Shown here: positions 2,631 through 24,946 of the stretch, one piece after another
How positions within the stretch are numbered: position 1 is the first letter of the stretch
Layout of the letters: the number at the start of each line of letters is the position of its first letter
Source of the DNA: a virus
Virus record (IMG/VR): IMGVR_UViG_3300025769_000742
Location: 1 to 25,727 of that record
Reading direction: 5' to 3' (one strand)
Length of the DNA: 25,727 bases
The notes under the pieces: model-generated
What the model was told of the DNA's origin: nothing
The model's input: the letters and a program-made list of their open reading frames with translations, nothing else
Database searches by the model: none
Translations under genes and position numbers: made by a program

Positions 2631-5600
2631 ATGGTAAGAAGTAAACACGTTAAAAATTATTCTCATGGAGGTTTTGTAAGTTATAGTGATTGGGTAAGTC
2701 GTAATACACCAGCTAATATGGGAGATATGCAAGCAGATAACTGGCTTGCAGGAGGAGCTAGACAGGCATACAATAAAGCAAAAAGAGAGTATGATAATAC
2801 CCAGCATTCAACAAATAATAATACTTCTAATAATAACACTCAAACTAACACAAATACTACAGATACAGGTACAACAACAGCAGATACTACAAATATAGGT
2901 ACAGGTACAACAACAGCAGATACTACAAATATAGGTACAGGTACAACAACAGTAACAGATACAGGTACTGCAGACACAGGTACTACAAATGAAGGTTACA
3001 ATTTTGGCAACGGTTTTATGTCTCCAGATGAAATTGGAACTCCTGGTGATTTTGGCCAAGATGGGGTACAAACTACTAATACACAAGGTACTCCTATATC
3101 TAGAAGTGAATGGCTAAATGCAAACAGACCTGCAGGTGGTGCGGCAGCCGATAACTGGGATGCAGGTGCTGGTGTAGCAGCCTATAACAGATATCTAAAT
3201 AATTTTAATTCAACAAATAATACAAATAACCAGATAGAGAAAGAGTTAGAAATGAGTGAAGGACCAGGGGGAATTACTGAAGAAGAAAAACAACAGTATT
3301 TAGGAAATACTGGTAATACTAATACCAACACTAATACCAATACTAATACTAATAATACAACTACTACTACTGAAGAAACAGAAAAGTTTACTTCTAGTTA
3401 CCGTGAGTTAGCTGGTCAAGAGTTTGCTACTGCAGCTGAAAGAGATGCAGCAGAAGCTCAAGTACGTGAACAGAGAAAAATAACTGAAAGATTTGAAGAA
3501 ATAGCAGCAGATCAAAAAACAATGTCTGATGATGCTAGAAAATTACAGAAAGATACTTTAGCAGATCCTGCAGCACAAATAACACAACAAACTGTAAAAG
3601 AATCAGATCCTAATGCAACTGGTACTTCTATTGCTACAGGCACTGGTGAAGTAGGCACTATAGATAAAGTTAATGCATCAACAGCTGCTGAATCAGATGT
3701 AGTTAAAGCTCCAACAAAAGAACCTTTAAAAACTCTTCAAGAATTTGTAAATGATGAGTTAGCATTAAATCCTAATCAAACTTATGCAAATGCTAGAAGT
3801 AAATATAATACATATAAAACAACTTGGGAAAATACTCCTGACCCAGCAGAAGCAGAAACTTATGAAGCCACTTCAGTAGAAGATAAAGCTAGAGAAGAAG
3901 CAGACAGAGTAGAAGGTGCAGAGGGTGAATTATCAGATGGTTCTACTTTTGAAGGTGCTGAAGGTGAACTATCAGAAGATGCTAAGGCTGATGGTGTAGA
4001 CTTTGACCCAAAAAGAATTAAAGAATATGTAGCTGGTGAAAGAACTGTAGACTCAAAAGAATTAGCAGAGGCACAGGGACTAGATGAAGAAGCAGTTAAA
4101 GCTAAGATTGCTCAGGCTGAAGTACCAGACAATATTGTTGCTGCTACTACTACAGTTAAACCAGAAGAGCTACCTGACGCTGCACAAATTAAAGAATCAG
4201 ACATGGCACAAGCTGCTAATGTTACAGATGAAGGTGGCTTAGATGCACCAGCAGTTGCTGCTAAACTAGAAAAATTTACTGTAGATGCTGAGACTTTAGC
4301 ACAGGCTGCACAAGGTGATGTAGACGCTCAGAGTACTGTACAAGGACAATTAAGTTCTTTGATGAAGGACTTTGATGATGGCACTCCAGCATGGGCTGCA
4401 GGAGCTATAAGAGCTGCTAACCAGGCAATGCTATCTCGTGGTATGGGTGGTAGTACTATGGCTGCTTCAGCTATACTACAAGCTGCAATGGAATCAGCAT
4501 TACCTATAGCTACACAAGATGCACAAACTTTTGCAACTATGAATATGCAAAACTTAAATAATAGACAACAGGTTGCTTTATCTAATGCTGCTGCTCAACA
4601 GGGACTCGCATTACAAAATTTAAACAATGAGCAACAGGCTATGTTACAGAATAGTACTAACTCATTTTCTTTACAATCTCAAAACTTATCTAACGTACAG
4701 CAAACAACTTTAGCTAATGCACAAATTAAAGCTGCATTGCAGGGTCAGAATTTATCTAATCAACAGCAAGCTAATATAGTAGAAGCTGCTCGTTATGCTG
4801 AAGTATCTAATCTTAACCTTAATAATAAACAGCAAGGTATACTACAAGATAACGCTAATACTATGCAAATAGAAGTAGCTAATCTTAATGCTAAACAGCA
4901 AGCCTATGTCGTTAATGCTCAACTTGAAGCAGCACTGCAAGGTAAACAAATAGATAACAAGCAACAAGTAGCTATACAAAATGCTTCTCGTTTTGCTGAT
5001 GCTAATAACCTAACCTTTACTGCACAGGAACAAGCTAAGATAAATAACTCTGAGCTTATGAAGACTATAGGTTTAGCAGAACTTAATTCAGAACAGGCAG
5101 CTACATTACAAAATGCTGCAGCTGTAGCATCAATGGATATGGCTAACCTATCTAATGAACAACAAGCTAAAGTAGCTAATGCTCAAGCTTTCTTATCTAT
5201 GGACATGGCTAACTTAAGTAATGATCAACAAGCTACTATGTTTAAAGCTCAAGCTATGCAACAAGCATTACTATCTGATCAAGCATCAGAAAATGCAGCT
5301 AAACAATTTAATGCAAGTAGTGAGAATCAAACTAAACAGTTTATGGCTAACTTAAATACACAAGTCCAACAGTTTAATGTTGCTCAAAAAAATGCTACTA
5401 ATCAGTTTAATGCTGGTGAACTTAATGCCGCTAAAAAATTTAATACAGAAATAGAAAATCAAAGAGATCAGTTTAATGCTAAGAACCAGTTAGTAATAGC
5501 ACAGGCTAATGCTGAGTGGAGACAGGGTGTTGAGCTTACTAATACAGCAGCACAAAATGCAGCTAATGCAGCTGACGCACTAGCCTCAAACAGCATGACT

Positions 5601-5801
5601 CAGGCTACATTAGATCAAGTGTGGCAACGTGAAAGAGATATGTTAGACTATGCTTTTAAAGCTAGTGAGAGTGCAGAAAACAGAGCCTTACAAATTGTTC
5701 TTGCAGATAAAACTGCTGATCAATATGCTGATGCAAGAGCTGATAGTAATCAGACATTTATGTATGCAGCATTAGTAAAAACATTATTTGGAATATTTTA
5801 A
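2631..5801 (+). CDS. Large repeat-built virion protein, probable internal/ejection protein
   Basis: The 1056-aa protein has four zones. (1) Residues 17-48 and 157-186 hold two copies of a motif S-x-S-x-W...ADNW-x-AG...AYN. (2) Between and after them are T/N/G-rich low-complexity linkers, with a 12-residue repeat at 79-108 and an NT run near 226-241. (3) About 245-640 is acidic, helical and A/E/D-rich, ending in a G/A/M-rich segment (about 585-630). (4) Residues 641-882 are eleven consecutive 22-residue repeats of the type NLSNxQQA, followed at 887-952 by six 11-residue repeats of the type ENxxxQFNAxx. The last residues (YAALVKTLFGIF) are hydrophobic. Position before two other large proteins and the helical build suggest the internal core proteins that T7-like phages eject through the envelope (gp14/gp15/gp16). 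The assignment is by layout, not homology. Confidence 0.75.
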   Translation: MVRSKHVKNYSHGGFVSYSDWVSRNTPANMGDMQADNWLAGGARQAYNKAKREYDNTQHSTNNNTSNNNTQTNTNTTDTGTTTADTTNIGTGTTTADTTNIGTGTTTVTDTGTADTGTTNEGYNFGNGFMSPDEIGTPGDFGQDGVQTTNTQGTPISRSEWLNANRPAGGAAADNWDAGAGVAAYNRYLNNFNSTNNTNNQIEKELEMSEGPGGITEEEKQQYLGNTGNTNTNTNTNTNTNNTTTTTEETEKFTSSYRELAGQEFATAAERDAAEAQVREQRKITERFEEIAADQKTMSDDARKLQKDTLADPAAQITQQTVKESDPNATGTSIATGTGEVGTIDKVNASTAAESDVVKAPTKEPLKTLQEFVNDELALNPNQTYANARSKYNTYKTTWENTPDPAEAETYEATSVEDKAREEADRVEGAEGELSDGSTFEGAEGELSEDAKADGVDFDPKRIKEYVAGERTVDSKELAEAQGLDEEAVKAKIAQAEVPDNIVAATTTVKPEELPDAAQIKESDMAQAANVTDEGGLDAPAVAAKLEKFTVDAETLAQAAQGDVDAQSTVQGQLSSLMKDFDDGTPAWAAGAIRAANQAMLSRGMGGSTMAASAILQAAMESALPIATQDAQTFATMNMQNLNNRQQVALSNAAAQQGLALQNLNNEQQAMLQNSTNSFSLQSQNLSNVQQTTLANAQIKAALQGQNLSNQQQANIVEAARYAEVSNLNLNNKQQGILQDNANTMQIEVANLNAKQQAYVVNAQLEAALQGKQIDNKQQVAIQNASRFADANNLTFTAQEQAKINNSELMKTIGLAELNSEQAATLQNAAAVASMDMANLSNEQQAKVANAQAFLSMDMANLSNDQQATMFKAQAMQQALLSDQASENAAKQFNASSENQTKQFMANLNTQVQQFNVAQKNATNQFNAGELNAAKKFNTEIENQRDQFNAKNQLVIAQANAEWRQGVELTNTAAQNAANAADALASNSMTQATLDQVWQRERDMLDYAFKASESAENRALQIVLADKTADQYADARADSNQTFMYAALVKTLFGIF
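2865..2952 (+). repeat. 36-bp in-frame tandem repeat, 2.4 copies
   Basis: Two identical 36-bp units at 2865-2900 and 2901-2936 are followed by the first 16 bp of a third at 2937-2952. Each unit codes for 12 residues (T-G-T-T-T-A-D-T-T-N-I-G). The lack of any base difference between the units points to recent duplication by slippage or unequal exchange, and to a flexible linker that tolerates length change. Confidence 0.9.
4551..5276 (+). repeat. Eleven tandem 66-bp units coding 22-residue helical repeats
   Basis: Within the 1056-residue protein, residues 641-882 divide exactly into eleven units of 22 residues without a gap. Each begins with a variant of N-L-(S/N)-N-x-Q-Q-(A/V) and contains a later N-A pair. 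DNA identity between units is limited, so the array is old and kept at protein level. A 22-residue period equals two hendecads, as in right-handed coiled coils or apolipoprotein-like amphipathic helices. Confidence 0.85.
5289..5486 (+). repeat. Six tandem 33-bp units coding 11-residue repeats
   Basis: Residues 887-952 of the 1056-residue protein form six units of 11 residues with Q/K-F at positions 6-7 and usually N at position 8 (units begin ENAAKQF, ENQTKQF, NTQVQQF, KNATNQF, LNAAKKF, ENQRDQF). The period is half that of the preceding 22-residue array and is in step with it after a 4-residue joint. Confidence 0.85.
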
Positions 5802-5815
5802 TTTAGGATTATAGA

Positions 5816-6118
5816 ATGTCAAAACTTACTTATGAAAGAACTTACAAAGCAGCTGATAGAGCTTACAAAGCAGATGATACAGCTTACTTTAGATTAGGAA
5901 AATTAGATCCTATGTTTGGTATACCACAAGCAGAGAGTATTAATCCAAGGTTATTAGAAAATGAGTCTGCAAAAAAAGGTTTAAAAAGTCTTATGTCTAA
6001 TACGTCAAAGAAAACTGCTAAGACTCAAGAAAGTATAGGTGAGTTAACTTTATTATTTAATCAAGTTAGAAAGCAGAATGAAGAATTAAAAAGTAATATA
6101 ATATCCGGAGAATCTTAA
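5816..6118 (+). CDS. Small phage protein of unknown function
   Basis: This 100-aa product has AGGA at 5805-5808, 7 nt before the ATG. The N-terminus contains a near repeat (TYKAADRA / AYKADDTA), the middle is basic, and residues 65-95 form a helix likely to be a coiled coil. It sits between the repeat-built virion protein and the next virion gene, and its TAA shares one base with the next ATG. It could be a minor virion or assembly protein; no family recognised. Confidence 0.7.
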   Translation: MSKLTYERTYKAADRAYKADDTAYFRLGKLDPMFGIPQAESINPRLLENESAKKGLKSLMSNTSKKTAKTQESIGELTLLFNQVRKQNEELKSNIISGES

Positions 6119-6702
6119 TGATTAATCAACCAATACCAGGACAATCTCTAACAGGAGAGCCTAAAGCTTATCCTTGGGAAAATCCACCTAAGTACACAAA
6201 GCCATTTGATGCAGCGATGTATCACTTAGAACAATTAAATGAACCTAAAAAAATTACATCTGCTTTAGATATGTTAGAGTTAGATATAGATCTGGTTACA
6301 TTAGTAAGTGGTATACTTCGTATGGGTGTCTCAGAAGGTATACATACTGTTGATGTTAGTTTATTAATTGCACCAGTAATACATGAGTTTATTAAAGGCC
6401 ATGCTGATAGAGCTGATATAGATTACAATGAAGGTTTTGCTGAAGAAGACATGGATCGTACAGATATAGAATATAGTATAAGACAAAAGAAATCAGAAAA
6501 ACTTTTAAAGAAAATTAAAGAAGAAGACATACCTGAAGAAATGCCTGAAGGTATGAGTATAAATATGTCACAAGATATACCTGAGGAGATGCCTAAAGAA
6601 ATGCCTGAGGAGATGCCTAAAGAAATGCCTGAGGAGATGACTGAAGTTATGCCTGAAGCACAACCTCAAGGACTTATGACTAGACAAGGGAGTGTTATGT
6701 AA
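6118..6702 (+). CDS. Phage protein with PIPGQSLT...PWENPP start and EEMPKEMP tail
   Basis: The 194-aa product has GGAG at 6107-6110 before the ATG. The N-terminal PIPGQSLTGEPKAYPWENPP is a style I associate with structural proteins of marine phages (recollection, no search). Residues 30-110 are a compact mixed helical domain without transmembrane character. From about 135 the tail is highly charged, with acidic P-E-E-M-P repeats, and ends in a Q/G-rich stretch. The gene lies in the virion block with single-base overlaps on both sides, so a virion-associated role is likely. Function unknown. Confidence 0.75.
   Translation: MINQPIPGQSLTGEPKAYPWENPPKYTKPFDAAMYHLEQLNEPKKITSALDMLELDIDLVTLVSGILRMGVSEGIHTVDVSLLIAPVIHEFIKGHADRADIDYNEGFAEEDMDRTDIEYSIRQKKSEKLLKKIKEEDIPEEMPEGMSINMSQDIPEEMPKEMPEEMPKEMPEEMTEVMPEAQPQGLMTRQGSVM
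6580..6639 (+). repeat. 24-bp in-frame tandem repeat, 2.5 copies
   Basis: Identical 24-bp units at 6580-6603 and 6604-6627 are followed by half a unit at 6628-6639. The unit codes P-E-E-M-P-K-E-M. Looser P-E-E-M-P copies lie upstream at about 6532-6560. Confidence 0.9.
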
Positions 6703-7880
6703 TGGGAGCTTGGGAAGGTATTTGGTTAGGTATGCAAGCAGTTGATGAGGCTAAGTACAGACAGGAAAAATTAGATCTTCAAAAAGACCAAGAAGAAAGA
6801 TTAAGAAAAGCTGAAGAGGCTAACAGCCAATTAAAAAAAATTCAGACACTAATGAAAACGAATAAAGATATATTTTCTAGTGGTAGTAAACGTACTACTA
6901 ATCTTTCAATTAAAGGAGATCTTGTAAAAGATCTAAAGAATTATTTTAACGATGATTTTTTAACTCCAATTCTTGCTACAAACAATCCTGAAATTCAAAG
7001 TAATTTATTAAAAGCTGTTAGAGAAACACATAATAAACTTGTTGAGTCAGGGGCATCAAGTAAAATAAATAAAGATAGAAATGGTGAATTATACGCAGGT
7101 ATAAATATTTTACCTGGGGGTGATGAAAATTTAATGTTAGAAAATATTATAAATAGATCTTTACAGTTAGGTATAACTAAAGAAACTTGGGAACAATACC
7201 CTGAAATAATGTCAAAAATAAAAAGAGACATAAAAGCTGCATCGTTACCAACTGCAAATATACACACTGTATCTGTTATGCCATTTGCTTCAGGAGCAGA
7301 AATAAAAAATGCTAATGAGTTAATGATGTTAAGTCATAACGAAAGCATGGAGGTTATAAAACAAGAGGTTGACAATATCAATGTATCACGATCAAGTAAT
7401 ATACCAATAGGTTTTAAGCAGTGGATTGCTACATACAAGACTTATTTAAATGATGTAGAAAATAGTACTGCTGCTAAAAAACTTGCTTTTACAGGTGTAA
7501 TTGAACCTGATACTATTTTTGCAGGTCAGGAAAATATTGCAGAAAATCCTTACATAGTTAATCTTGTAAATAAAGCTAATCAACTTAGGCAAGGAATGTC
7601 TATTGATTTAATAGGTGATAAAGAGCCAGGTGGGGGTGTTAATTATAATTTTTGGGGTAATCCAGCTCAAGAAGCAATATATAAACTTGAAGATGGTGAG
7701 TGGTATGCAGGAAAAAATAATCCTTATAAACAAATAAGAAATTACTTTAATGAAACTGGAATAAAATTAATACCTGAAGGTAGTATTGTTGAAGTAATGA
7801 TGAGAAAAACTGTAACCCAAGGTGCTCCTGGTTCTCCTATGTATGAGTATGTTAGACAAAAAATAAGAATGGGGTATTAA
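6702..7880 (+). CDS. Putative internal virion protein (392 aa)
   Basis: The ATG shares its A with the previous TAA and has GGGAG about 6 nt upstream. Residues 15-55 form a strongly charged coiled coil (KYRQEKLDLQKDQEERLRK). The rest is a soluble mixed domain with no transmembrane segment, ending in an aromatic/basic tail (YEYVRQKIRMGY). It sits between the 1056- and 1407-residue proteins, where the middle-sized core protein of a T7-like ejection complex would be. That assignment is by position only; I see no catalytic motif. Confidence 0.7.
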   Translation: MGAWEGIWLGMQAVDEAKYRQEKLDLQKDQEERLRKAEEANSQLKKIQTLMKTNKDIFSSGSKRTTNLSIKGDLVKDLKNYFNDDFLTPILATNNPEIQSNLLKAVRETHNKLVESGASSKINKDRNGELYAGINILPGGDENLMLENIINRSLQLGITKETWEQYPEIMSKIKRDIKAASLPTANIHTVSVMPFASGAEIKNANELMMLSHNESMEVIKQEVDNINVSRSSNIPIGFKQWIATYKTYLNDVENSTAAKKLAFTGVIEPDTIFAGQENIAENPYIVNLVNKANQLRQGMSIDLIGDKEPGGGVNYNFWGNPAQEAIYKLEDGEWYAGKNNPYKQIRNYFNETGIKLIPEGSIVEVMMRKTVTQGAPGSPMYEYVRQKIRMGY

Positions 7881-7885
7881 TAATA

Positions 7886-10800
7886 ATGGATACTGCTCAA
7901 GAAATCTTAGAGATTGGCCCTATAAAAATAGATCCAAAAGAGGCAGCATCGTCTTGGATAAAAACTTTTAATCCTGCTGTTTCATTAAGTATGCAACCTG
8001 AAGAAGATAAAGAAGAAATCTTGGAGATTGGTCCTATAAAAACAGAGCCAGTAAATCCAGATCAACTGTCACCTTTTTTAAATACAGATCACCCACTTTC
8101 TGAGAGTGGATCTCATGTTATATCTCCTAACTATAAATCCTCTCATGAATTAGAAATGAATAAAGCTTGGAAAGAAAAAAATAAGACAGATGTTCCTTGG
8201 GCTATAGGTAACGTTAGAGAAATTATTAAGCATAGGTATAACAATGAGGGCTTAACAGAAAAGGATATTTTTGATCCAGTAAAAGGTGCGGATCTTAGGG
8301 AAGTAGTCTATCAATTTATGGAAAACAGATGGAGAGATGATTACGTAAAGTACTTACAAAGATCTAAAAACCTTGTTACACTTGCATCAGATCCTGGGTT
8401 TGATAGAGACTTTAGAAAAATGCCTTTTGAAAAAGTTTATGAGATGTATCAAAATCATCAAAGAAACTTTTCTGGTGGTAACACAGCTACAACTATAAAT
8501 GAATTAACTTATATGTTAGCAGCAGATGATCCAACAAGAGCAGCATTAGGTGCTGGTTATATACTACATGATAGTATGCAAAGTATATTTTCTGGGGAAA
8601 GATCTGAAATTTTAGATGGGTTAATAGATTATGGCAGTGCTGCACTACTAGACCCAGCAATAATTTTTACAATAGGTTTAAGTAAAATTGCAGCACCAGG
8701 TATAAGTGCTGCTAGTCGTAAGCTAGCACTAAATAAACTTAAAAAAGCATACGCAAAAAATATTTCTATTAAAAAAAATATTCCTGTAAAAGAAGCATTA
8801 GGTATAGCAAACAAAAAAGCAGCTACTCTATTAGGTACTACAAGTTTACTTTTACCTGAGATAGCAGTTAATTCTGGTGTAAATGTTGCCTACCAAAACA
8901 CTAATATTAGAGCAGGTTCTCAAGAAGAGTTTGATCCTAATCAACTATGGTTTGTAGCAATGTCTTCTCTTATTGTCCCTGGAATTTATTATGGAGGTAA
9001 AAAAATAAAAGGTCTAAGAGAGCTTAAAAAAAATCAAGACATTAATTTTTCTATGTTTCATTACCGTAAATATGATTCAGCTTTTATAACTGGGGGTAAG
9101 AAAAGATTAGAACAAGCCATTAAAGATACAATAGAATCACCTAAAGTAATGAAAAATTTACTAGAAAATTTTAATTTAAAGTTTGGAACTTTAAGTCCTA
9201 AAGGAAAAGTTGTAAAAGGTAGAATAGATGATAATAAACCAGCAAACTATTTTAGAAGCTGGGAAGAAAGTAAAATTGTAGCAGGTAAACGTGTTGCTAA
9301 AAGGAATGAAGAATATACTAATGATGAAGTTTTAAATTTATTTTTTGATTTCTTTTGGAAAGGATCTAAGCCAGATGAAAATGGTAATCAAGCAGTAAAA
9401 GGTTATTATCAAATATTAAAAGAAGCAGGTTGGACTGTTCATAGTTCTCAATTCGATGGTAAGGGTGGAACAACAAATGCCTTTGCTTTAGCAATAGATT
9501 TTATACCACCTAAAGTACAAAGAGAATTAATAAAAGAGTTTGAAAATTCTACAGGTTTAAAGTTTCCATCCACATTTACAAAGAGTGGTAAGCAGCAAAG
9601 TGCTGTTAGCTTATCTGCACATTTTATAAATCAAGCAAGTCAAGCAGGTAAGTCATTAGGTCTTAGAGGATACTTATCTAAAATAGAACAACTAGGATTT
9701 TTAAGTGATGCAGATAAAGTAAAAATAATAACTAATCAAGATTTAGAAAAAGTTTTACCTCCAGAAAGACTTAATTTTATGATTGGGATTTATAAAAGAT
9801 TATTAACATCTCACCCTGCAACTACAGGTGCAAACATAAAAGGTTTTGCATATACTTCAGCTTATAATATGTTAGGTGATACAGCACTTGGTGCATTTGA
9901 TATGGGTAGGTCTGCACTTTCTAAAGTATTTGATGACAGTGTTGAAGGGCAAGCTGCTGCTGCAAAGTATTGGCGTGAGGGTTTTGGAACTATGACAGGT
10001 ACTCTTAATAGAGGACTTGATATATTTACACCAGAGTTACCAATTAATTTTGCAAAGTTTATATTTGAATTAAATCCAAAAGCAGAAAAAGAACTTTTTT
10101 CAACCATCGGTGGTTCACATAATGTTAGAAGTGCAGCAACAGCATTTAATCTAGAAAAAGTACCTACTGCAGCGGCTTGGCGTACTGTAGATAAAGCTAC
10201 TCAATTTATACAAACTGTAAATATGATTAAGCTACAAGATGAAGTAACTAAACTTTGGACATTTGGTACAGAAGTTAATAAACTAATACGTAAAAAATAT
10301 GGTACAGATCCAGTTAAATTTTTTGATCAGCCAGATGTATTTCAAATAGTAGCAAGAAAAGATTTTCAAGATGAAATAATAGCACCTGCATTACAAAGAA
10401 CTAGAGATGCAACTGCATCTAACAACTGGGAAATGAGAGCTAAAACTACAAAAACTGTACTCGCTGGTGTAGCAGGTTGGTTTGAAAAACATACTAAAGG
10501 TCTTGTAGGTATTCCAATACCTTTTGCAAGTTTTATGAATACAGCTGCAAAAATTACAGGTGATTTAACTGGCGTTAATTATATACGCAGAAAAATACAT
10601 AGGATTGCAAAGAAAACAGGAATAACTAATAAGACTCCTGATGAGTTAATTAATATAGGAGACCCTAGTGATACAGAATTACTTACTAGAGCTGTAGCAT
10701 TTTATGCTTATCAAGGTACTAAGTTTATAGCTGGAGGTTCAATAGATGATTTAAGTGCAGTAGGTGCTGGTGAAGAATATATAGATCATCCAATATACAG

Positions 10801-12109
10801 AGTTAAAAATGGTTTAACTTGGAATATGCAACAAAATAATGATGGAAGTATTTCTGAAAGACAGTATGATTTCCCTGAATCTATAGTTCGTATTATAGAT
10901 CAAATGTCTGCTCATAAAATATTAGAGATAAGAAATAAAGGCTCTGATAGTAATAAAGCTTTTGAAAATTTTGATTTTGGTAACAAAAATAATTTAATGA
11001 AATATATTAATAATATTAAAAATGAATCTCAACTTAGTGATGACCCTAATTTTTTAGATAATGTAAATTTTGAAGGTATACCAGCACGTTTATGGATAGA
11101 TTTAGGTGAGCAGTTAGGTACTTCTAATATTAGAAGTGTAAAAAATATTACATCTGAATCTAGATTTATAATAGATATGCTTGAAGATGACAATTATACT
11201 ACTGGAGGTAATCTTGGATTTATATTACAAGCTGCTGTAGACTTAAGTGGTAGGGCAGCTAGTCAACTTGGAGCAGGGGGAACTAGATTTTTAGATCCTC
11301 TCAATCAAACAATTAAAAACTATAGAGGTGATGAAGTAGTACCTGATTTAAATCAAGGTAATAGAAATTTAAATTACTCTTTAAAATATGTAGACAGTAT
11401 TATAAAAGCTTTTGAAGATTTTAGTGGTACAGCTATACTACCTGAAGAATTACGAGAGCCTTTTAAAAAAGTTTCAATATGGGAAGAAAAAACAAATGAC
11501 TTAGGTACTTTAGTATTTGGTACTAGATCTCTAAAAGAACCTACTTTATTTCTACAACTTTTAAATTCTGCTGGTATAAGAGCCTACGCACCTAAATTTT
11601 TAGGTGCACCATCACCAGATAATATAAAAGTAAGAGGGCCAGGTGAATTAACAAGTGCATTAAATGATGTTTTAAGAAATGAATTAAATAACCAAACTCA
11701 AATATTTTTTGATGGTGAAGCTAAAGGAATAAATATTAATGAGCTAAGTCAAAAAAATAAAGAAAAAGCTATTAAGATAATAACTAGTAGAGCTAGAGAT
11801 AATATAATGAGCACTCTAAAAAAATCTAATAGTAGAGAAGATAAAAATTATTTAATTGTAAATGATATACTTGGAACTACTAATGCAGCTTTTAATCAGG
11901 CGGTAAAAGAATTGTTTCCCGATAAAAATATTAATTTAAGAACTAAGTATGATGCTATAGAAGAAATATTAACTATGTTTCCTATATTAGATGAAGAAGA
12001 ATTACAATCTCCTTTTAAAACAAAAGGAGTAACACAGTTAGAAGCATTACTAGAAAAAATAAAAACAATAGAAAAACAAGATAGTATGTTAAAGAGAATA
12101 AAAAATTAA
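7886..12109 (+). CDS. Very large internal virion/ejection protein (1407 aa)
   Basis: This is the largest gene of the window, starting 5 nt after the preceding stop. Features in order: a duplicated peptide LEIGPIK (residues 8-14 and 46-52); a helical domain; hydrophobic helices around 245-275 (AALLDPAIIFTIGLSKIAAPG), 310-325 and 355-370; a long mixed region; G/P-rich hydrophobic patches near 865-890 (GIPIPFASFMN); and a charged C-terminus. I could not find a lytic transglycosylase Glu/SLT motif like that in T7 gp16. Length, last place in the virion block and scattered amphipathic or membrane-like helices fit a gp16-like protein that enters the cell with the DNA. The function is an inference from layout. 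It ends in a TAA that overlaps the stop of the opposing gene. Confidence 0.75.
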   Translation: MDTAQEILEIGPIKIDPKEAASSWIKTFNPAVSLSMQPEEDKEEILEIGPIKTEPVNPDQLSPFLNTDHPLSESGSHVISPNYKSSHELEMNKAWKEKNKTDVPWAIGNVREIIKHRYNNEGLTEKDIFDPVKGADLREVVYQFMENRWRDDYVKYLQRSKNLVTLASDPGFDRDFRKMPFEKVYEMYQNHQRNFSGGNTATTINELTYMLAADDPTRAALGAGYILHDSMQSIFSGERSEILDGLIDYGSAALLDPAIIFTIGLSKIAAPGISAASRKLALNKLKKAYAKNISIKKNIPVKEALGIANKKAATLLGTTSLLLPEIAVNSGVNVAYQNTNIRAGSQEEFDPNQLWFVAMSSLIVPGIYYGGKKIKGLRELKKNQDINFSMFHYRKYDSAFITGGKKRLEQAIKDTIESPKVMKNLLENFNLKFGTLSPKGKVVKGRIDDNKPANYFRSWEESKIVAGKRVAKRNEEYTNDEVLNLFFDFFWKGSKPDENGNQAVKGYYQILKEAGWTVHSSQFDGKGGTTNAFALAIDFIPPKVQRELIKEFENSTGLKFPSTFTKSGKQQSAVSLSAHFINQASQAGKSLGLRGYLSKIEQLGFLSDADKVKIITNQDLEKVLPPERLNFMIGIYKRLLTSHPATTGANIKGFAYTSAYNMLGDTALGAFDMGRSALSKVFDDSVEGQAAAAKYWREGFGTMTGTLNRGLDIFTPELPINFAKFIFELNPKAEKELFSTIGGSHNVRSAATAFNLEKVPTAAAWRTVDKATQFIQTVNMIKLQDEVTKLWTFGTEVNKLIRKKYGTDPVKFFDQPDVFQIVARKDFQDEIIAPALQRTRDATASNNWEMRAKTTKTVLAGVAGWFEKHTKGLVGIPIPFASFMNTAAKITGDLTGVNYIRRKIHRIAKKTGITNKTPDELINIGDPSDTELLTRAVAFYAYQGTKFIAGGSIDDLSAVGAGEEYIDHPIYRVKNGLTWNMQQNNDGSISERQYDFPESIVRIIDQMSAHKILEIRNKGSDSNKAFENFDFGNKNNLMKYINNIKNESQLSDDPNFLDNVNFEGIPARLWIDLGEQLGTSNIRSVKNITSESRFIIDMLEDDNYTTGGNLGFILQAAVDLSGRAASQLGAGGTRFLDPLNQTIKNYRGDEVVPDLNQGNRNLNYSLKYVDSIIKAFEDFSGTAILPEELREPFKKVSIWEEKTNDLGTLVFGTRSLKEPTLFLQLLNSAGIRAYAPKFLGAPSPDNIKVRGPGELTSALNDVLRNELNNQTQIFFDGEAKGININELSQKNKEKAIKIITSRARDNIMSTLKKSNSREDKNYLIVNDILGTTNAAFNQAVKELFPDKNINLRTKYDAIEEILTMFPILDEEELQSPFKTKGVTQLEALLEKIKTIEKQDSMLKRIKN
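7901..8042 (+). repeat. Two copies of a 28-bp direct repeat coding EILEIGPIK
   Basis: The segments 7901-7928 and 8015-8042 differ at two third-codon positions and both code E-I-L-E-I-G-P-I-K. They lie 38 codons apart at the start of the 1407-residue protein. Silent differences combined with an unchanged peptide suggest selection on the peptide itself, perhaps as a short docking or packaging signal. Confidence 0.8.
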
Positions 12110-22446: not shown

Positions 22447-22729
22447 AAAAATCCTCCACAAAATCTAAATAATCAGAACTCACCATAAGCATATACTCAT
22501 TGTTCATACCCCTTGATGGCTGATCTATTACAACTAAAGCATCGTATCCATTCTCTCCATCACTGCCTTTAATATTATCACTACAACTTTGTAGCAGTGT
22601 AATCTCAAGGTCATCTGTACAGTCTACATATACTGCTGCACCTATATCTAACTTCAACATAGGTAAAGAGTGCACCTGTTTAATCATCTCTTTACGTGAT
22701 GCACTGTAAGTTTCGGTAGTCATATTCAT
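22439..22729 (-). CDS. Small acidic phage protein (96 aa)
   Basis: AAAGGAGC lies about 7 nt before the ATG at 22729, and the start overlaps the methyltransferase stop as ATGA. A second in-frame ATG two codons later is a less likely start. The protein is acidic, with strand-like segments (LKLDIGAAVYVDCTDDLEITLL, YDALVVID, EYMLMVSSDYLDFV). It has no membrane segment and no catalytic motif I can name. Function unknown; the coupling suggests it is made with the methyltransferase. Confidence 0.7.
   Translation of the reverse strand: MNMTTETYSASRKEMIKQVHSLPMLKLDIGAAVYVDCTDDLEITLLQSCSDNIKGSDGENGYDALVVIDQPSRGMNNEYMLMVSSDYLDFVEDFYG
22452..22457 (-). promoter_or_regulatory. Strong Shine-Dalgarno for the 42-aa gene
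   Basis: GGAGGA on the minus strand, 5 nt before the ATG at 22446, within the 3' end of the upstream gene. It is the main reason for calling this short gene. Confidence 0.8.
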
Positions 22730-23640
22730 AGTTCTGCTCCTTTCAATATATGAGCAATAACATCTACAGTAAATCCATTACCTAACATCTTATACCTTTG
22801 GGTATTACTAACATGATTAGTATAATTATCAGGTACTGTCTGTAGTCTCTCACATTCAAGAGGTGTGAGCTTCCTCCAGTGTAGCTTATCTACACTATCC
22901 CATTCATGCCTATCATAGCTACCTCTACCGCCTGATCTGACAGTCTTAGACTTTTCTCTGATAGGTGATGTCATTACCTTAGGTTCTCTGTGACCACCAC
23001 CCATAGTTGTAAGTGTAGGTGCTTTACCTTCTGGGCTATAGACTCTTTTGATTATGTCAAAACCTTTTATATCTGCTTCACCTACTTGTTTACATCCCTG
23101 AGTATATCTATTCGTGACTGTATGATTATCCTCAAGTATATCAGCTAAGATAATACCTTTATCATCTGGTAAATCAAAGTCTATGTTAGTCCAGAATAAT
23201 CTATTCCTATTCTGTGCTGATACAAGTGAAGAGTTAAACTGTTTAGGTTTTACACCAAGGTACTTACTAATAATATCCTGGTTCTCTTGTTTCATTCTTA
23301 CATTTTCTAGAATAAAATACTTAGGGTTTAACTCATTCTTCAAGCGAACAAACTCAAAGAATAAACTAGACCTAGTACCTTCTTTTAATCCTTTACCTTT
23401 ACCTGCAAAGGATAGATCTTGACATGGGCTGCCACCAATCAACAGGTCTACCTCACCCACATCTTTAGCCTTAACATCACAGACATCACCAAGTTGTTCT
23501 ATGTCAGGGTAGTTTTCATGAGATACTTTAATAGCATACTTGTCTAACTCACTTGCTTTGTAGCTTGTCACTGCTATGCCAACCCTATCAAGTGCTATTC
23601 TAGCACATGACATACCATCAAATAAACTTAATACTCTCAT
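22726..23640 (-). CDS. dcm: DNA (cytosine-5-)methyltransferase
   Basis: The enzyme transfers a methyl group from S-adenosylmethionine to C5 of cytosine. In the 304-residue form, motif I is LSLFDGMSCARIAL, motif IV is G-S-P-C73-Q (catalytic cysteine), motif VI is E-N-V (FILENVRM), motif VIII is QNRNRLFW, and the C-terminal part has LTPLECERLQTVPDNY and the motif X strand Y-K-M-L-G-N-G-F-T-V. I chose the ATG at 23640 because AGGAG (23649-23653) lies 8 nt upstream and it overlaps the preceding stop as ATGA; an in-frame ATG at 23670 has no SD. No partner restriction enzyme is seen, so it is probably a solitary enzyme that shields phage DNA. Target sequence unknown. Confidence 0.92.
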   Translation of the reverse strand: MRVLSLFDGMSCARIALDRVGIAVTSYKASELDKYAIKVSHENYPDIEQLGDVCDVKAKDVGEVDLLIGGSPCQDLSFAGKGKGLKEGTRSSLFFEFVRLKNELNPKYFILENVRMKQENQDIISKYLGVKPKQFNSSLVSAQNRNRLFWTNIDFDLPDDKGIILADILEDNHTVTNRYTQGCKQVGEADIKGFDIIKRVYSPEGKAPTLTTMGGGHREPKVMTSPIREKSKTVRSGGRGSYDRHEWDSVDKLHWRKLTPLECERLQTVPDNYTNHVSNTQRYKMLGNGFTVDVIAHILKGAEL

Positions 23641-24149
23641 GCTGCTAACTCCTGTGTTGTTTGTAACCATGTAGGCATTGGTCTGTTTTTATTCCACCTT
23701 GCAAAGTCCATCTTACCACGCTGATAGAATGCACGATAGGCTTTGATAGGCCACCTCTCGTCTGTCTTAAGATCATCATGTCCTGAGAAACACTGGGGGT
23801 GTGGTGTTATCATACCACTAGGTATGTATTTAAAACCATCTTGTATCTTATGTAGATGTTTACCTGCACCATGATACTTACCATAACGATGTGTATACTC
23901 TATCAACATTGCTTCATATAACCTAAACGCAAAGGCATAGTTATCTCTTGTCTCCATAGCCCACAGTGTACAAGGGTGTCTCTGATGCACTGCTTTATAG
24001 AGATTGTTTTTCTCTGCATACTCTGGTGCATGATGTCTTAGTGCAGTACATAACATCTGTGCTTCTTCGAGTGGCATCTTGACAATGTGTTGGTCACACA
24101 ATGACCTAGCTATGTCTTGTGGATCGTGATCAATTATAAACCTATTCAT
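23637..24149 (-). CDS. Conserved phage protein of unknown function (170 aa)
   Basis: The protein begins M-N-R-F-I-I-D-H-D-P-Q and contains CDQHIVKMPLEEAQMLCTAL, HQRHPCTLWAMETRDNYAFAFRLYEAML, a tyrosine-rich YTHRYGKYHG stretch and a C-terminal AYRAFYQRGKMDFARW. I recall this order of blocks (DP...CD.H..KM..E.AQML, HPCT.WA, YT.RYGK.H, AYR..Y) from many unrelated phages, always unnamed. The several H, D, E and C residues in conserved blocks suggest an enzyme or metal binder. AAGGAAA (24154-24160) lies 4-5 nt before the ATG at 24149; an ATG at 24164 overlaps the previous stop but has no SD. Confidence 0.75.
   Translation of the reverse strand: MNRFIIDHDPQDIARSLCDQHIVKMPLEEAQMLCTALRHHAPEYAEKNNLYKAVHQRHPCTLWAMETRDNYAFAFRLYEAMLIEYTHRYGKYHGAGKHLHKIQDGFKYIPSGMITPHPQCFSGHDDLKTDERWPIKAYRAFYQRGKMDFARWNKNRPMPTWLQTTQELAA
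23649..23653 (-). promoter_or_regulatory. Shine-Dalgarno that decides the methyltransferase start
   Basis: AGGAG on the minus strand, 8 nt before the ATG at 23640. It lies within the longer frame that begins at 23670 and so favours the shorter protein, which begins directly before motif I. Confidence 0.75.
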
Positions 24150-24160
24150 TTTATTTCCTT

Positions 24161-24946
24161 TCATATTAATTTAAGTTGCTCAGGTTTTCTATAAACACTT
24201 TCTAATTTAGGGTGGTTAATTTCTGTAAACTCTAGGTCACAAAAGTTACCACAATCAGGCATTATTATTTTTTGTTTGCGGCCAGCATCTGGATCTAGTT
24301 CATCTAGAAATATATTTCTTATACAAGAATGACCCACTACACGTTCTGCTTCTGCCATTCTCTTAAACGAATCTGGAAAATCTTCTCGTATCTTATTCCA
24401 ATAACCCATACCACCTTTAACACAACCAATACAATTATTATTATTGTAACCTAAGTCATACATAACAGGTCTTTTTATACCCTGTTTTTCTAGAAAGAAT
24501 AAACTCTCAGGCTTAGTCATCTTATTATGTATCAAAGGGAATAGAGGTTTAGCTTCTGGATACTGTTCTTTAAATCTAATAGCTCTATTAATTTCTTTCT
24601 TACTGTACTCAAATCCAAACACCTGACCAGAATAACTTAAAGTTTTTTCTATCCTCTGTCTAACTTTTTTCTTTAGTACAAGAGTGCAGCGAGCACCTCC
24701 TGGACCATTTACATATTTATCTTTTAGTATTACATCGAATTGATCTTTGTGGTTGGGTGCTCTGTGAACTTCTATTTCTTTATCATACCAATCTTCACAC
24801 TGGGTTTTAAACCTTTCATTATCTTTATGAGCACTATCAATGGCGAAATAAATAGGAGTAACATTATCTTTACCGTACTCATCGAGAGCTAACTTAGTTG
24901 CTACTGCACTTGTAACACCTGCACTCCACCAAGATATAATTGTCAT
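24161..24946 (-). CDS. PAPS-reductase-like PP-loop protein with cysteine cluster
   Basis: The 261-aa protein starts with a strand and the loop S5-W-W-S8-A-G10-V-T-S13, a variant of the SGGxxS pyrophosphate-binding loop of PAPS reductase, DndC and tRNA-thiolation enzymes. YFAIDSAHKDNE follows as the second nucleotide-binding segment. Cysteines C87 (GGARCT), C172-x2-C175 (NNCIGCVKGG), C208, C232 and C236 could bind a 4Fe-4S cluster. These families activate or transfer sulfur or adenylate a base. In a phage, DNA or tRNA modification and sulfur metabolism are all possible, and the sequence does not decide. The stop of the 51-aa gene lies immediately before its ATG (TAAATG). Confidence 0.8.
   Translation of the reverse strand: MTIISWWSAGVTSAVATKLALDEYGKDNVTPIYFAIDSAHKDNERFKTQCEDWYDKEIEVHRAPNHKDQFDVILKDKYVNGPGGARCTLVLKKKVRQRIEKTLSYSGQVFGFEYSKKEINRAIRFKEQYPEAKPLFPLIHNKMTKPESLFFLEKQGIKRPVMYDLGYNNNNCIGCVKGGMGYWNKIREDFPDSFKRMAEAERVVGHSCIRNIFLDELDPDAGRKQKIIMPDCGNFCDLEFTEINHPKLESVYRKPEQLKLI

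What the first reader, a model, noticed from the sequence alone, without database searches (positions are those of the whole stretch)
4551..5486. Perfect 22-residue repeats turning into 11-residue repeats in a virion protein
Residues 641-882 are eleven gap-free 22-residue repeats and residues 887-952 are six 11-residue repeats. Both periods fit hendecad helices, which form right-handed coiled coils or long amphipathic helices able to line a tube or lie on a membrane. A gap-free array of this length suggests a measured structure such as a periplasm-crossing ejection tube, with repeat number setting its length. At about 1.5 A per residue the 22-mer array alone would span roughly 36 nm if it is one straight helix.
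Basis: partly seen in the sequence, partly recalled or inferred. Interest (0 to 1): 0.7.

Follow-up and report, generated by a model that had tools for sequence, protein, structure and literature searches.

The report
Phage protein repeats in five-unit steps
An uncharacterised protein of abundant short-tailed ocean viruses carries a chain of short helical repeats whose number, in hundreds of relatives, changes almost only in blocks of five, which suggests that five repeats make one structural unit of a part probably used to deliver viral DNA into the cell.

Summary
Residues 641-882 of the 1056-aa ORF (2631-5801) are eleven gap-free 22-mers (lag-22 identity 0.34; 0.1% shuffle tail 0.20), followed by 11-mers. 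Repeats are gap-free, not identical.

The protein belongs to an unnamed family of HMO-2011-type podophages. It lies at the end of the structural module, next to a conserved PIPGQSLT protein (329/359 loci) and a ~1100-1400-aa protein: the layout of podophage ejection modules. It matches no Pfam, PHROG or PDB family.

New result: in 359 unique homologues the array length is a multiple of 11 aa in all but one. On a tree of the flanks (124 sequences) unit number changes at least 31 times, but its class modulo 5 only 6 times (modulo 2, 3, 4, 6, 7: 20, 25, 27, 30, 30). The series are 1, 6, 11, 16, 21, 26 and 4, 9, 14, 19. Long arrays show a 110-residue (5 x 22) super-repeat.

One straight 36-nm ruler helix is not supported: each unit carries helix-cap signatures, low-confidence AlphaFold models break the helix at units, and 1-26 units would span 3-85 nm.

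Best reading: an ejection-type internal protein built of five-helix, 110-residue super-units. Its presence in virions and its structure are unproven.

The parts
2631..5801 (+). Repeat protein, 1056 aa, uncharacterised family of HMO-2011-type podophages
   Evidence: ORF; 27 phage records match; no Pfam or PHROG family
2631..4247 (+). N-terminal half (residues 1-539): Thr/Asn-rich, low-complexity, very variable in length between homologues, with two copies of a ~36-residue SYSDW.../SRSEW... motif
   Evidence: translation; short tandem repeats 2847-2987 and 3314-3369; ORF length 460-1586 aa while the flanks stay constant
4371..4550 (+). Conserved N flank (about residues 581-640): PAWAAGAIRAAN-AMLSRGMGGSTMAASAILQAAMESALPIATQDA, start of the long helical region
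   Evidence: alignments A1, A3 with invariant P, W, R, G, A, D columns; N-flank HMM used for counting
4551..5276 (+). Eleven gap-free 22-residue units (residues 641-882)
5277..5507 (+). 11-residue units (residues 883-959), six with F at position 11 and a seventh without; conserved C flank DQA.ENAAKQFNASSENQ
   Evidence: C-flank HMM
5508..5801 (+). C-terminal helical domain (residues 960-1056), conserved ..ANAEWRQ...NTAAQN...WQRERD...
   Evidence: alignment A1 invariant columns
5816..6118 (+). Small ORF (100 aa) in the module; poorly conserved
6118..6702 (+). PIPGQSLT-type protein (194 aa), the most conserved neighbour of the repeat gene
   Evidence: homologue in 329 of 359 loci, median offset 392 nt, and in all six phage records tested
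6702..7880 (+). 392-aa module protein, function unknown
7886..12109 (+). 1407-aa last protein of the structural module; profile match to HMO-2011 gp22 and to the ctYwJ313 1218-aa protein
   Evidence: hhalign 95.9% (E 6e-9) and 95.5% (E 1e-8); order conserved

Best explanation
This is a packaged internal (ejection-type) virion protein of HMO-2011-type podophages. Its centre is a modular array of short amphipathic helices, one per 22-residue unit. Five units (110 residues, a-b-c-d-e) form one structural super-unit, most simply one turn of a superhelix or one register step of an oligomer, so the array can lengthen or shorten without disturbing its two ends only by whole super-units. The protein probably leaves the head with the DNA and becomes part of the envelope conduit together with the large protein encoded at the end of the module. 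Shown: array, family, gene order, whole-unit variation, step of five, super-repeat. Inferred: virion location, ejection, helix-turn geometry, structural cause of the step.
For: Unit number changes at least 31 times on a tree built from the flanks only, but its class modulo 5 changes 6 times; modulo 2, 3, 4, 6, 7, 8 it changes 20, 25, 27, 30, 30, 30 times; 300 random relabellings gave a mean of 24 and a minimum of 12. Unit by unit alignment shows exact five-unit indels inside otherwise similar arrays: L112/L111, L199/L162, L130/L117. Lag-5 self-similarity is z 5.1 (21 units) and 7.5 (26 units), with lag 4 and 6 negative. In the separate 14-unit clade, 19-unit members carry five extra units, whose best self-match is again lag 5 (p 0.015-0.12). 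Helix-cap signatures in the unit agree with an AlphaFold model that has a helix at positions 4-19 of several units. Module order matches podophage ejection operons, as described for T7/P22/SP6 in PMC8954989.
Against: No sequence relation to T7 gp14, P22 gp7 or P22 gp20 was detectable, and none to any PDB chain. AlphaFold confidence is low (pLDDT 55-56, pTM 0.23-0.34), so helix-turn is not shown. Exceptions exist: 14 to 11 units in L307/L311, an 11-aa insertion in L089, a 121-aa array in L324, and 2-, 3- and 7-unit members outside the two main series. Recombination between phages would make the tree overcount independent events. No virion proteomics was found.
Confidence: 0.5

Rival explanations
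1. The five-unit step is only history: once a five-unit block had been duplicated, unequal recombination between its copies kept adding or removing the same 330-bp block, with no structural reason.
For: Lag-5 similarity is strongest in the longest arrays, as expected if blocks were copied. Tape measure proteins with 11-residue repeats are known to evolve by block duplication of n x 11 residues (44 aa in a Bacillus group case; PMC3271669).
Against: The copies are far diverged (units 5 apart share roughly 20-55% aa), poor substrates for homologous recombination. The same step appears in the 4/9/14/19 series, where 14-unit arrays have no lag-5 similarity (z -1.6), and between 6 and 11 units, where 11-unit arrays show lag 3, not lag 5.
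Confidence: 0.35
2. One reading: the array is one continuous right-handed hendecad helix that assembles into a straight periplasm-crossing tube, and repeat number sets its length.
For: Hydrophobic period 98.0-98.25 degrees (3.66-3.67 residues/turn) in HMO-type arrays and in the 11-mers; no proline in the aligned units, 30% Asn+Gln. The phiX174 H tube is a decameric coil with three hendecads and an Asn/Gln/Arg-lined lumen (PMC7354561). The C-terminal 11-mer region is one long helix in both models. An odd step of five would invert the C end of an up-down hairpin array but not of a continuous helix (inference).
Against: N-cap residues at position 3 in 93% of units and C-cap G/N at position 21. 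AlphaFold breaks the helix at most units. The range is 1 to 26 units, 3-85 nm if straight. Nothing in a plain hendecad helix explains a step of five rather than one.
Confidence: 0.2
3. The protein is not ejected but is a tail or head accessory component (fibre, scaffold or internal core) that stays with the particle.
For: It follows tail and tail-fibre genes in HMO-2011. Slicky01's last module protein resembles a family annotated 'head and packaging, virion structural protein'. No virion or ejection experiment is available.
Against: The order repeat protein - small genes - mid-size - very large protein at the end of the structural module, before the divergent replication genes, is that of podophage ejection operons (PMC8954989).
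Confidence: 0.2

Closest known systems
Siphovirus tape measure proteins with 11-residue repeats (Belcaid et al. 2011, PMC3271669)
   Same: Gap-free 11-residue periodicity, aromatic marker every 11 residues (here F in the C-terminal array), length variation by whole blocks
   Different: HMO-2011-type phages are podoviruses without a long tail to measure; unit is 22 aa; block is 110 aa; no significant structural match to tape measure models (best E 0.15)
phiX174 H protein DNA-translocating tube (PMC7354561)
   Same: Hendecad helices, richness in Asn/Gln, a proposed role in passing a genome through the envelope
   Different: No sequence match in the PDB search; H has three hendecads then heptads; here 2 to 52 hendecads plus helix-cap signals
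T7 gp14 / P22 gp7 first ejection protein
   Same: Gene position before a mid-size and a very large module protein; a Gly-Leu-Gly-Ser-Ser-like motif before a long helix (best local alignment to gp14 falls on it)
   Different: Similarity not significant (probability 0.4%); gp14 is 181-240 aa (PMC8954989), the repeat protein 460-1586 aa
HMO-2011 gp25 (YP_008320287.1) and orthologues in roseophages, pelagiphages, phiM6, CHOED, MQM1, Slicky01
   Same: Same family by sequence, flanks and gene order
   Different: Annotated 'hypothetical protein' (in ctYwJ313 'huntingtin'); 6 units in HMO-2011, 11 here

Membership tests
HMO-2011-type podophage repeat protein (gp25 family) | Significant sequence similarity over flanks and array | tested here: met
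   tblastn E 7e-55 to HMO-2011, 2e-111 to ctYwJ313
HMO-2011-type podophage repeat protein (gp25 family) | Conserved neighbours downstream in the same order | tested here: met
   PIPGQSLT protein in 329/359 loci; last large protein profile match 95.9% to HMO-2011 gp22
T7-type ejection (internal core) protein gp14 | Detectable sequence or profile homology | tested here: not met
   hhalign A1 vs gp14 alignment and N flank vs gp14: probability below 1%
T7-type ejection (internal core) protein gp14 | Gene order: ejection genes clustered, ending in the largest gene | tested here: met
   against PMC8954989
T7-type ejection (internal core) protein gp14 | Predicted transmembrane helices | tested here: inconclusive
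   No 19-residue hydropathy window above 1.6 in the repeat protein, but T7 gp14 itself reaches only 1.31 in the same scan
T7-type ejection (internal core) protein gp14 | Present inside virions and found in the host envelope after infection | not testable with these tools
   needs mass spectrometry and fractionation
Tape measure protein | Gap-free 11-residue repeats varying by whole units | tested here: met
   all but one of 359 array lengths are multiples of 11
Tape measure protein | Long-tailed phage whose tail length scales with the gene | tested here: not met
   Relatives are podoviruses: MQM1 tail 9.2 nm (PMC10410586); HMO-2011 described as a podovirus (PMC6256558)
phiX174 H-type DNA tube | Homology to H protein | tested here: not met
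   No PDB chain below E 0.17
phiX174 H-type DNA tube | Oligomeric tube with amide-lined lumen | not testable with these tools
Apolipoprotein-type 22-residue amphipathic repeats | Proline-punctuated 22-mers | tested here: not met
   no proline in the aligned HMO-type units; no Pfam apolipoprotein match to this protein

The most novel reading that the evidence does not exclude
The array is a new kind of helical solenoid: one short helix per 22-residue unit and five units (110 residues) per superhelical turn, so that evolution can insert or delete only whole turns. Packaged copies would unfold through the portal and rewind or stack into a DNA conduit.
Probability: 0.25. Interest if true: 0.8.

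Novelty: new variant of a known kind. Interest (0 to 1): 0.62.

Why it matters
How short-tailed phages carry DNA across the envelope is known in atomic detail for only a few phages such as T7, and HMO-2011-type phages are among the dominant marine virus groups, yet this protein is annotated 'hypothetical'. A repeat array that changes almost only in steps of five gives a sharp, testable structural prediction (110-residue super-unit) from sequence alone. It also shows that envelope width is unlikely to set its length, since near relatives differ by 110 or 220 residues.

Tried and rejected
(1) Domain naming: Pfam and PHROG scans of the protein, its family and its neighbours gave nothing usable; the single above-threshold Pfam hit (Vps4_C on one member of the neighbour family) looks spurious. 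(2) PDB profile search: best E 0.17, a kinetoplastid protein aligned to the 11-mers, rejected as chance. (3) Fold searches with the low-confidence model: in BFVD the only significant hits share 24-40% sequence identity, so they are probably family members, with no usable superposition; PDB best E 0.59. (4) Homology to T7 gp14, P22 gp7 and gp20: not significant; one planned gp7 profile comparison did not run and repeated the gp14 result, so P22 gp7 rests alone. (5) Anchor-regex counts gave false 'exceptions' (L060, L124, L134, L091, L101); replaced by flank HMMs. (6) Co-variation of repeat number with the length of neighbouring proteins: no clear trend for the 194-aa family; too few full-length cases for the large protein. 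(7) Virion proteomics for HMO-2011, phiM6, MQM1 or CHOED: none found in the papers held. (8) 'Chance' and 'assembly artefact': excluded by the lag statistics and by independent contigs and isolates.

Full report
What is there. The finding lies in a 1056-residue ORF, 2631-5801 on the + strand. Residues 641-882 are eleven consecutive 22-residue units with no gap; the typical unit across the family reads N-L-S-N-x-Q-Q-x-x-L-x-N-A-Q-x-x-x-x-hydrophobic-x-x-x. Identity at lag 22 is 0.336, against a 99.9% shuffle limit of 0.199 for the best of all lags. Residues 883-959 are 11-residue units, six with Phe at the last position. The window's first 11,798 bases match two uncultivated-virus contigs at 99.9-100%.

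Whose protein it is. tblastn against annotated phages finds 27 records: HMO-2011 of SAR116, roseophages, pelagiphages, rhizobiophages (phiM6), Vibrio CHOED, Aeromonas MQM1 and 1233, Pseudoalteromonas Slicky01 and the uncultured podovirus ctYwJ313. Those with annotation are called 'hypothetical', except one automatic 'huntingtin'. The gene lies late in the structural module, after tail and fibre genes, followed by a small ORF, a ~170-aa protein with the motif PIPGQSLT, a 390-600-aa protein and an 800-1400-aa protein, and then (in most) by the divergent replication genes. The PIPGQSLT gene is found next to the repeat gene in 329 of 359 loci and in all six phage records tested. The last large protein matches HMO-2011 gp22 by profile (95.9%, E 6e-9) but not those of phiM6, CHOED, MQM1 or Slicky01. 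This is the layout of podophage ejection operons, where the gp14-like gene precedes gp15- and gp16-like genes (PMC8954989). That the protein is in the virion and is ejected remains inference.

Repeat number. Using HMMs of the two conserved flanks, I measured the array in 359 unique homologues (a first set of 233). Every length but one (570) is a multiple of 11 aa, and nearly all are multiples of 22. Counts by units: 1 (7 sequences), 2 (55), 3 (2), 4 (1), 5.5 (1), 6 (137), 7 (10), 11 (44), 11.5 (1), 14 (62), 16 (24), 19 (4), 21 (7), 26 (3, plus the one with a 2-residue deletion). Isolates add 9 units in pelagiphages HTVC103P and HTVC115P.

A step of five. The values fall into two main series, 1-6-11-16-21-26 and 4-9-14-19. 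On an IQ-TREE of the flanks alone (124 whole-unit sequences), unit number changes at least 31 times, but its class modulo 5 changes only 6 times. For moduli 2, 3, 4, 6, 7, 8, 9 and 10 the class changes 20, 25, 27, 30, 30, 30, 29 and 23 times. Giving the unit numbers random values from 1 to 26 (300 trials) produced a mean of 24 changes modulo 5 and never fewer than 12. Close relatives show the step directly: L112 (21) against L111 (26), L199 (16) against L162 (21) and L130 (21) against L117 (26) align unit by unit with one block of exactly five inserted; over the aligned units the first two pairs are about 85% identical and the third somewhat less. In the 14-unit clade, whose array sequence is different, L308 and L327 have 19 units; in all four 19-unit sequences the best self-match is units 5-9 against 10-14, at lag 5 (permutation p 0.015-0.12).

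A 110-residue super-repeat. In 21- and 26-unit arrays similarity at lag 5 exceeds permuted orders by z 5.1 and 7.5, lag 10 by 2.0 and 4.3, while lags 4 and 6 are below expectation. The five unit types are recognisable: one ends in ..LxG(Q/K), the next in ..RYAEVNNI, then ..EG(K/R/Q), then ..ER.I or ..V.DI, then ..VD(M/L). The 11-unit arrays (the window's size class) show lag 3 instead (z 2.3) and the 14-unit arrays no lag-5 signal (z -1.6), so the step of five is not only a copy-number echo of a visible block.

Exceptions. L307 and L311 lost three units from a 14-unit array; L089 carries an 11-residue insertion; L324 measures 5.5 units; the 2-, 3- and 7-unit groups belong to neither main series. 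The rule is a strong tendency, not a law. Recombination between phages can inflate the number of changes on a flank tree; the unit-by-unit alignments do not have this weakness.

Helix or helices. Hydrophobicity peaks at 98.0-98.25 degrees per residue, the hendecad value, in every HMO-type size class and in the 11-mers; in 14-unit arrays a second peak at 109.75 degrees is slightly higher. Yet the 22-mer looks like one helix plus a turn: position 3 is S, N, T or D in 93% of units (the classical N-cap set), position 2 is Leu or Phe in 88%, position 6 is Gln in 89% (capping-box place), position 21 is Gly or Asn in about 36% (C-cap place), and the aligned units contain no proline. AlphaFold models of residues 540-1056 (38 mixed sequences) and 551-1037 (29 gapless eleven-unit sequences) are of low confidence (pLDDT 55.5 and 55.9, pTM 0.23 and 0.34). 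Both make the 11-mer region a long helix; the second gives a helix at about positions 4-19 with breaks of about six residues in several units, with block pLDDT of about 60-72 across units 3-8. Oligomers, which may decide the matter, could not be predicted. An odd step of five argues against a simple up-down hairpin stack, where losing an odd number of helices would invert the far end; it fits a superhelix with five helices per turn, or a continuous rod in an oligomer with a rotational register. This last point is inference.

Ruler or not. With 1 to 26 units, a straight helix of 0.15 nm per residue would span about 3 to 85 nm. Sisters such as L111/L112 differ by 16 nm on this count. A length set by periplasm width is therefore unlikely, though unit number may set the length of something else. 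Nor is this a tail ruler in the usual sense: the relatives are short-tailed (MQM1 tail 9.2 nm, PMC10410586).

Comparison with what is known. The nearest evolutionary parallel is the siphovirus tape measure protein, where 11-residue repeats are gap-free, carry an aromatic marker and change by whole blocks such as 44 residues (PMC3271669). The nearest mechanical parallel is the phiX174 H tube, with hendecads and an amide- and guanidinium-lined lumen (PMC7354561). The nearest positional parallel is T7 gp14; the best local alignment of the N flank to gp14 falls on the AAIGESMLEGSSM / AAN-AMLSRGMGGSTM motif, but at 0.4% probability. I do not file the protein as a member of any of these. It is a member of the HMO-2011 gp25 family, itself uncharacterised.

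Verdict. The explanation offered with it is half right: hendecad periodicity, an ejection-type module and whole-unit variation stand; a straight measured tube does not. The new and testable fact is the five-unit step.

Noticed in passing
788-1285, 1270-1656, 1653-2057: Three consecutive small genes start with signal-peptide-like sequences (MIKRLATAILLMSASSALA, MYSKIILALGFIFCTTLHA, MRILLIICLLVCSYIPSWA): a run of apparently exported phage proteins just upstream of the repeat gene. Two have weak matches to PHROGs of unknown function.
   Followed up: partly
2066-2569: 167-aa protein with an N-terminal membrane-like segment (KD 1.74) and a long charged helix that weakly matches the Pfam apolipoprotein model (E 9e-4, below cut-off). 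Holin or spanin-like role possible, untested.
   Followed up: no
2631-4247: N-terminal half of the repeat protein: two copies of a ~36-residue motif (SYSDWVSRNTPA..ADNWLAGGARQAYN and SRSEWLNANRPA..ADNWDAGAGVAAYN) around Thr/Asn-rich stretches, including a perfect 36-bp tandem repeat at 2864-2952.
   Followed up: no
6523-6658: The PIPGQSLT neighbour ends in a 12/24-bp tandem repeat coding EEMPKEMP-like units, not seen in the homologues I looked at.
   Followed up: no
L146, L232-L311 (14-unit clade): A large, sequence-distinct marine clade (62 unique members with exactly 14 units) with 19-unit and 11-unit variants. Its array has no five-unit self-similarity and shows a second hydrophobic peak at 109.75 degrees.
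   Followed up: partly
L320-L328: Homologues in MAGs labelled Euryarchaeota, Blastopirellula, Flavobacteriaceae, Campylobacteraceae and others. These are probably phage contigs binned with the wrong host, or unknown host links.
   Followed up: no
22726-23670 and 24161-24946 (-): By eye, a C5 DNA methyltransferase-like gene and a PAPS-reductase-like gene close together; possible DNA modification genes. Not searched.
   Followed up: no
L500 3476-4417 (CRP-603); L504 1-2008 (HTVC033P): A gene annotated 'cell wall hydrolase' directly downstream of the repeat gene in one roseophage, and 2OG-Fe(II) oxygenase and putative ferrochelatase genes just upstream in a pelagiphage.
   Followed up: no
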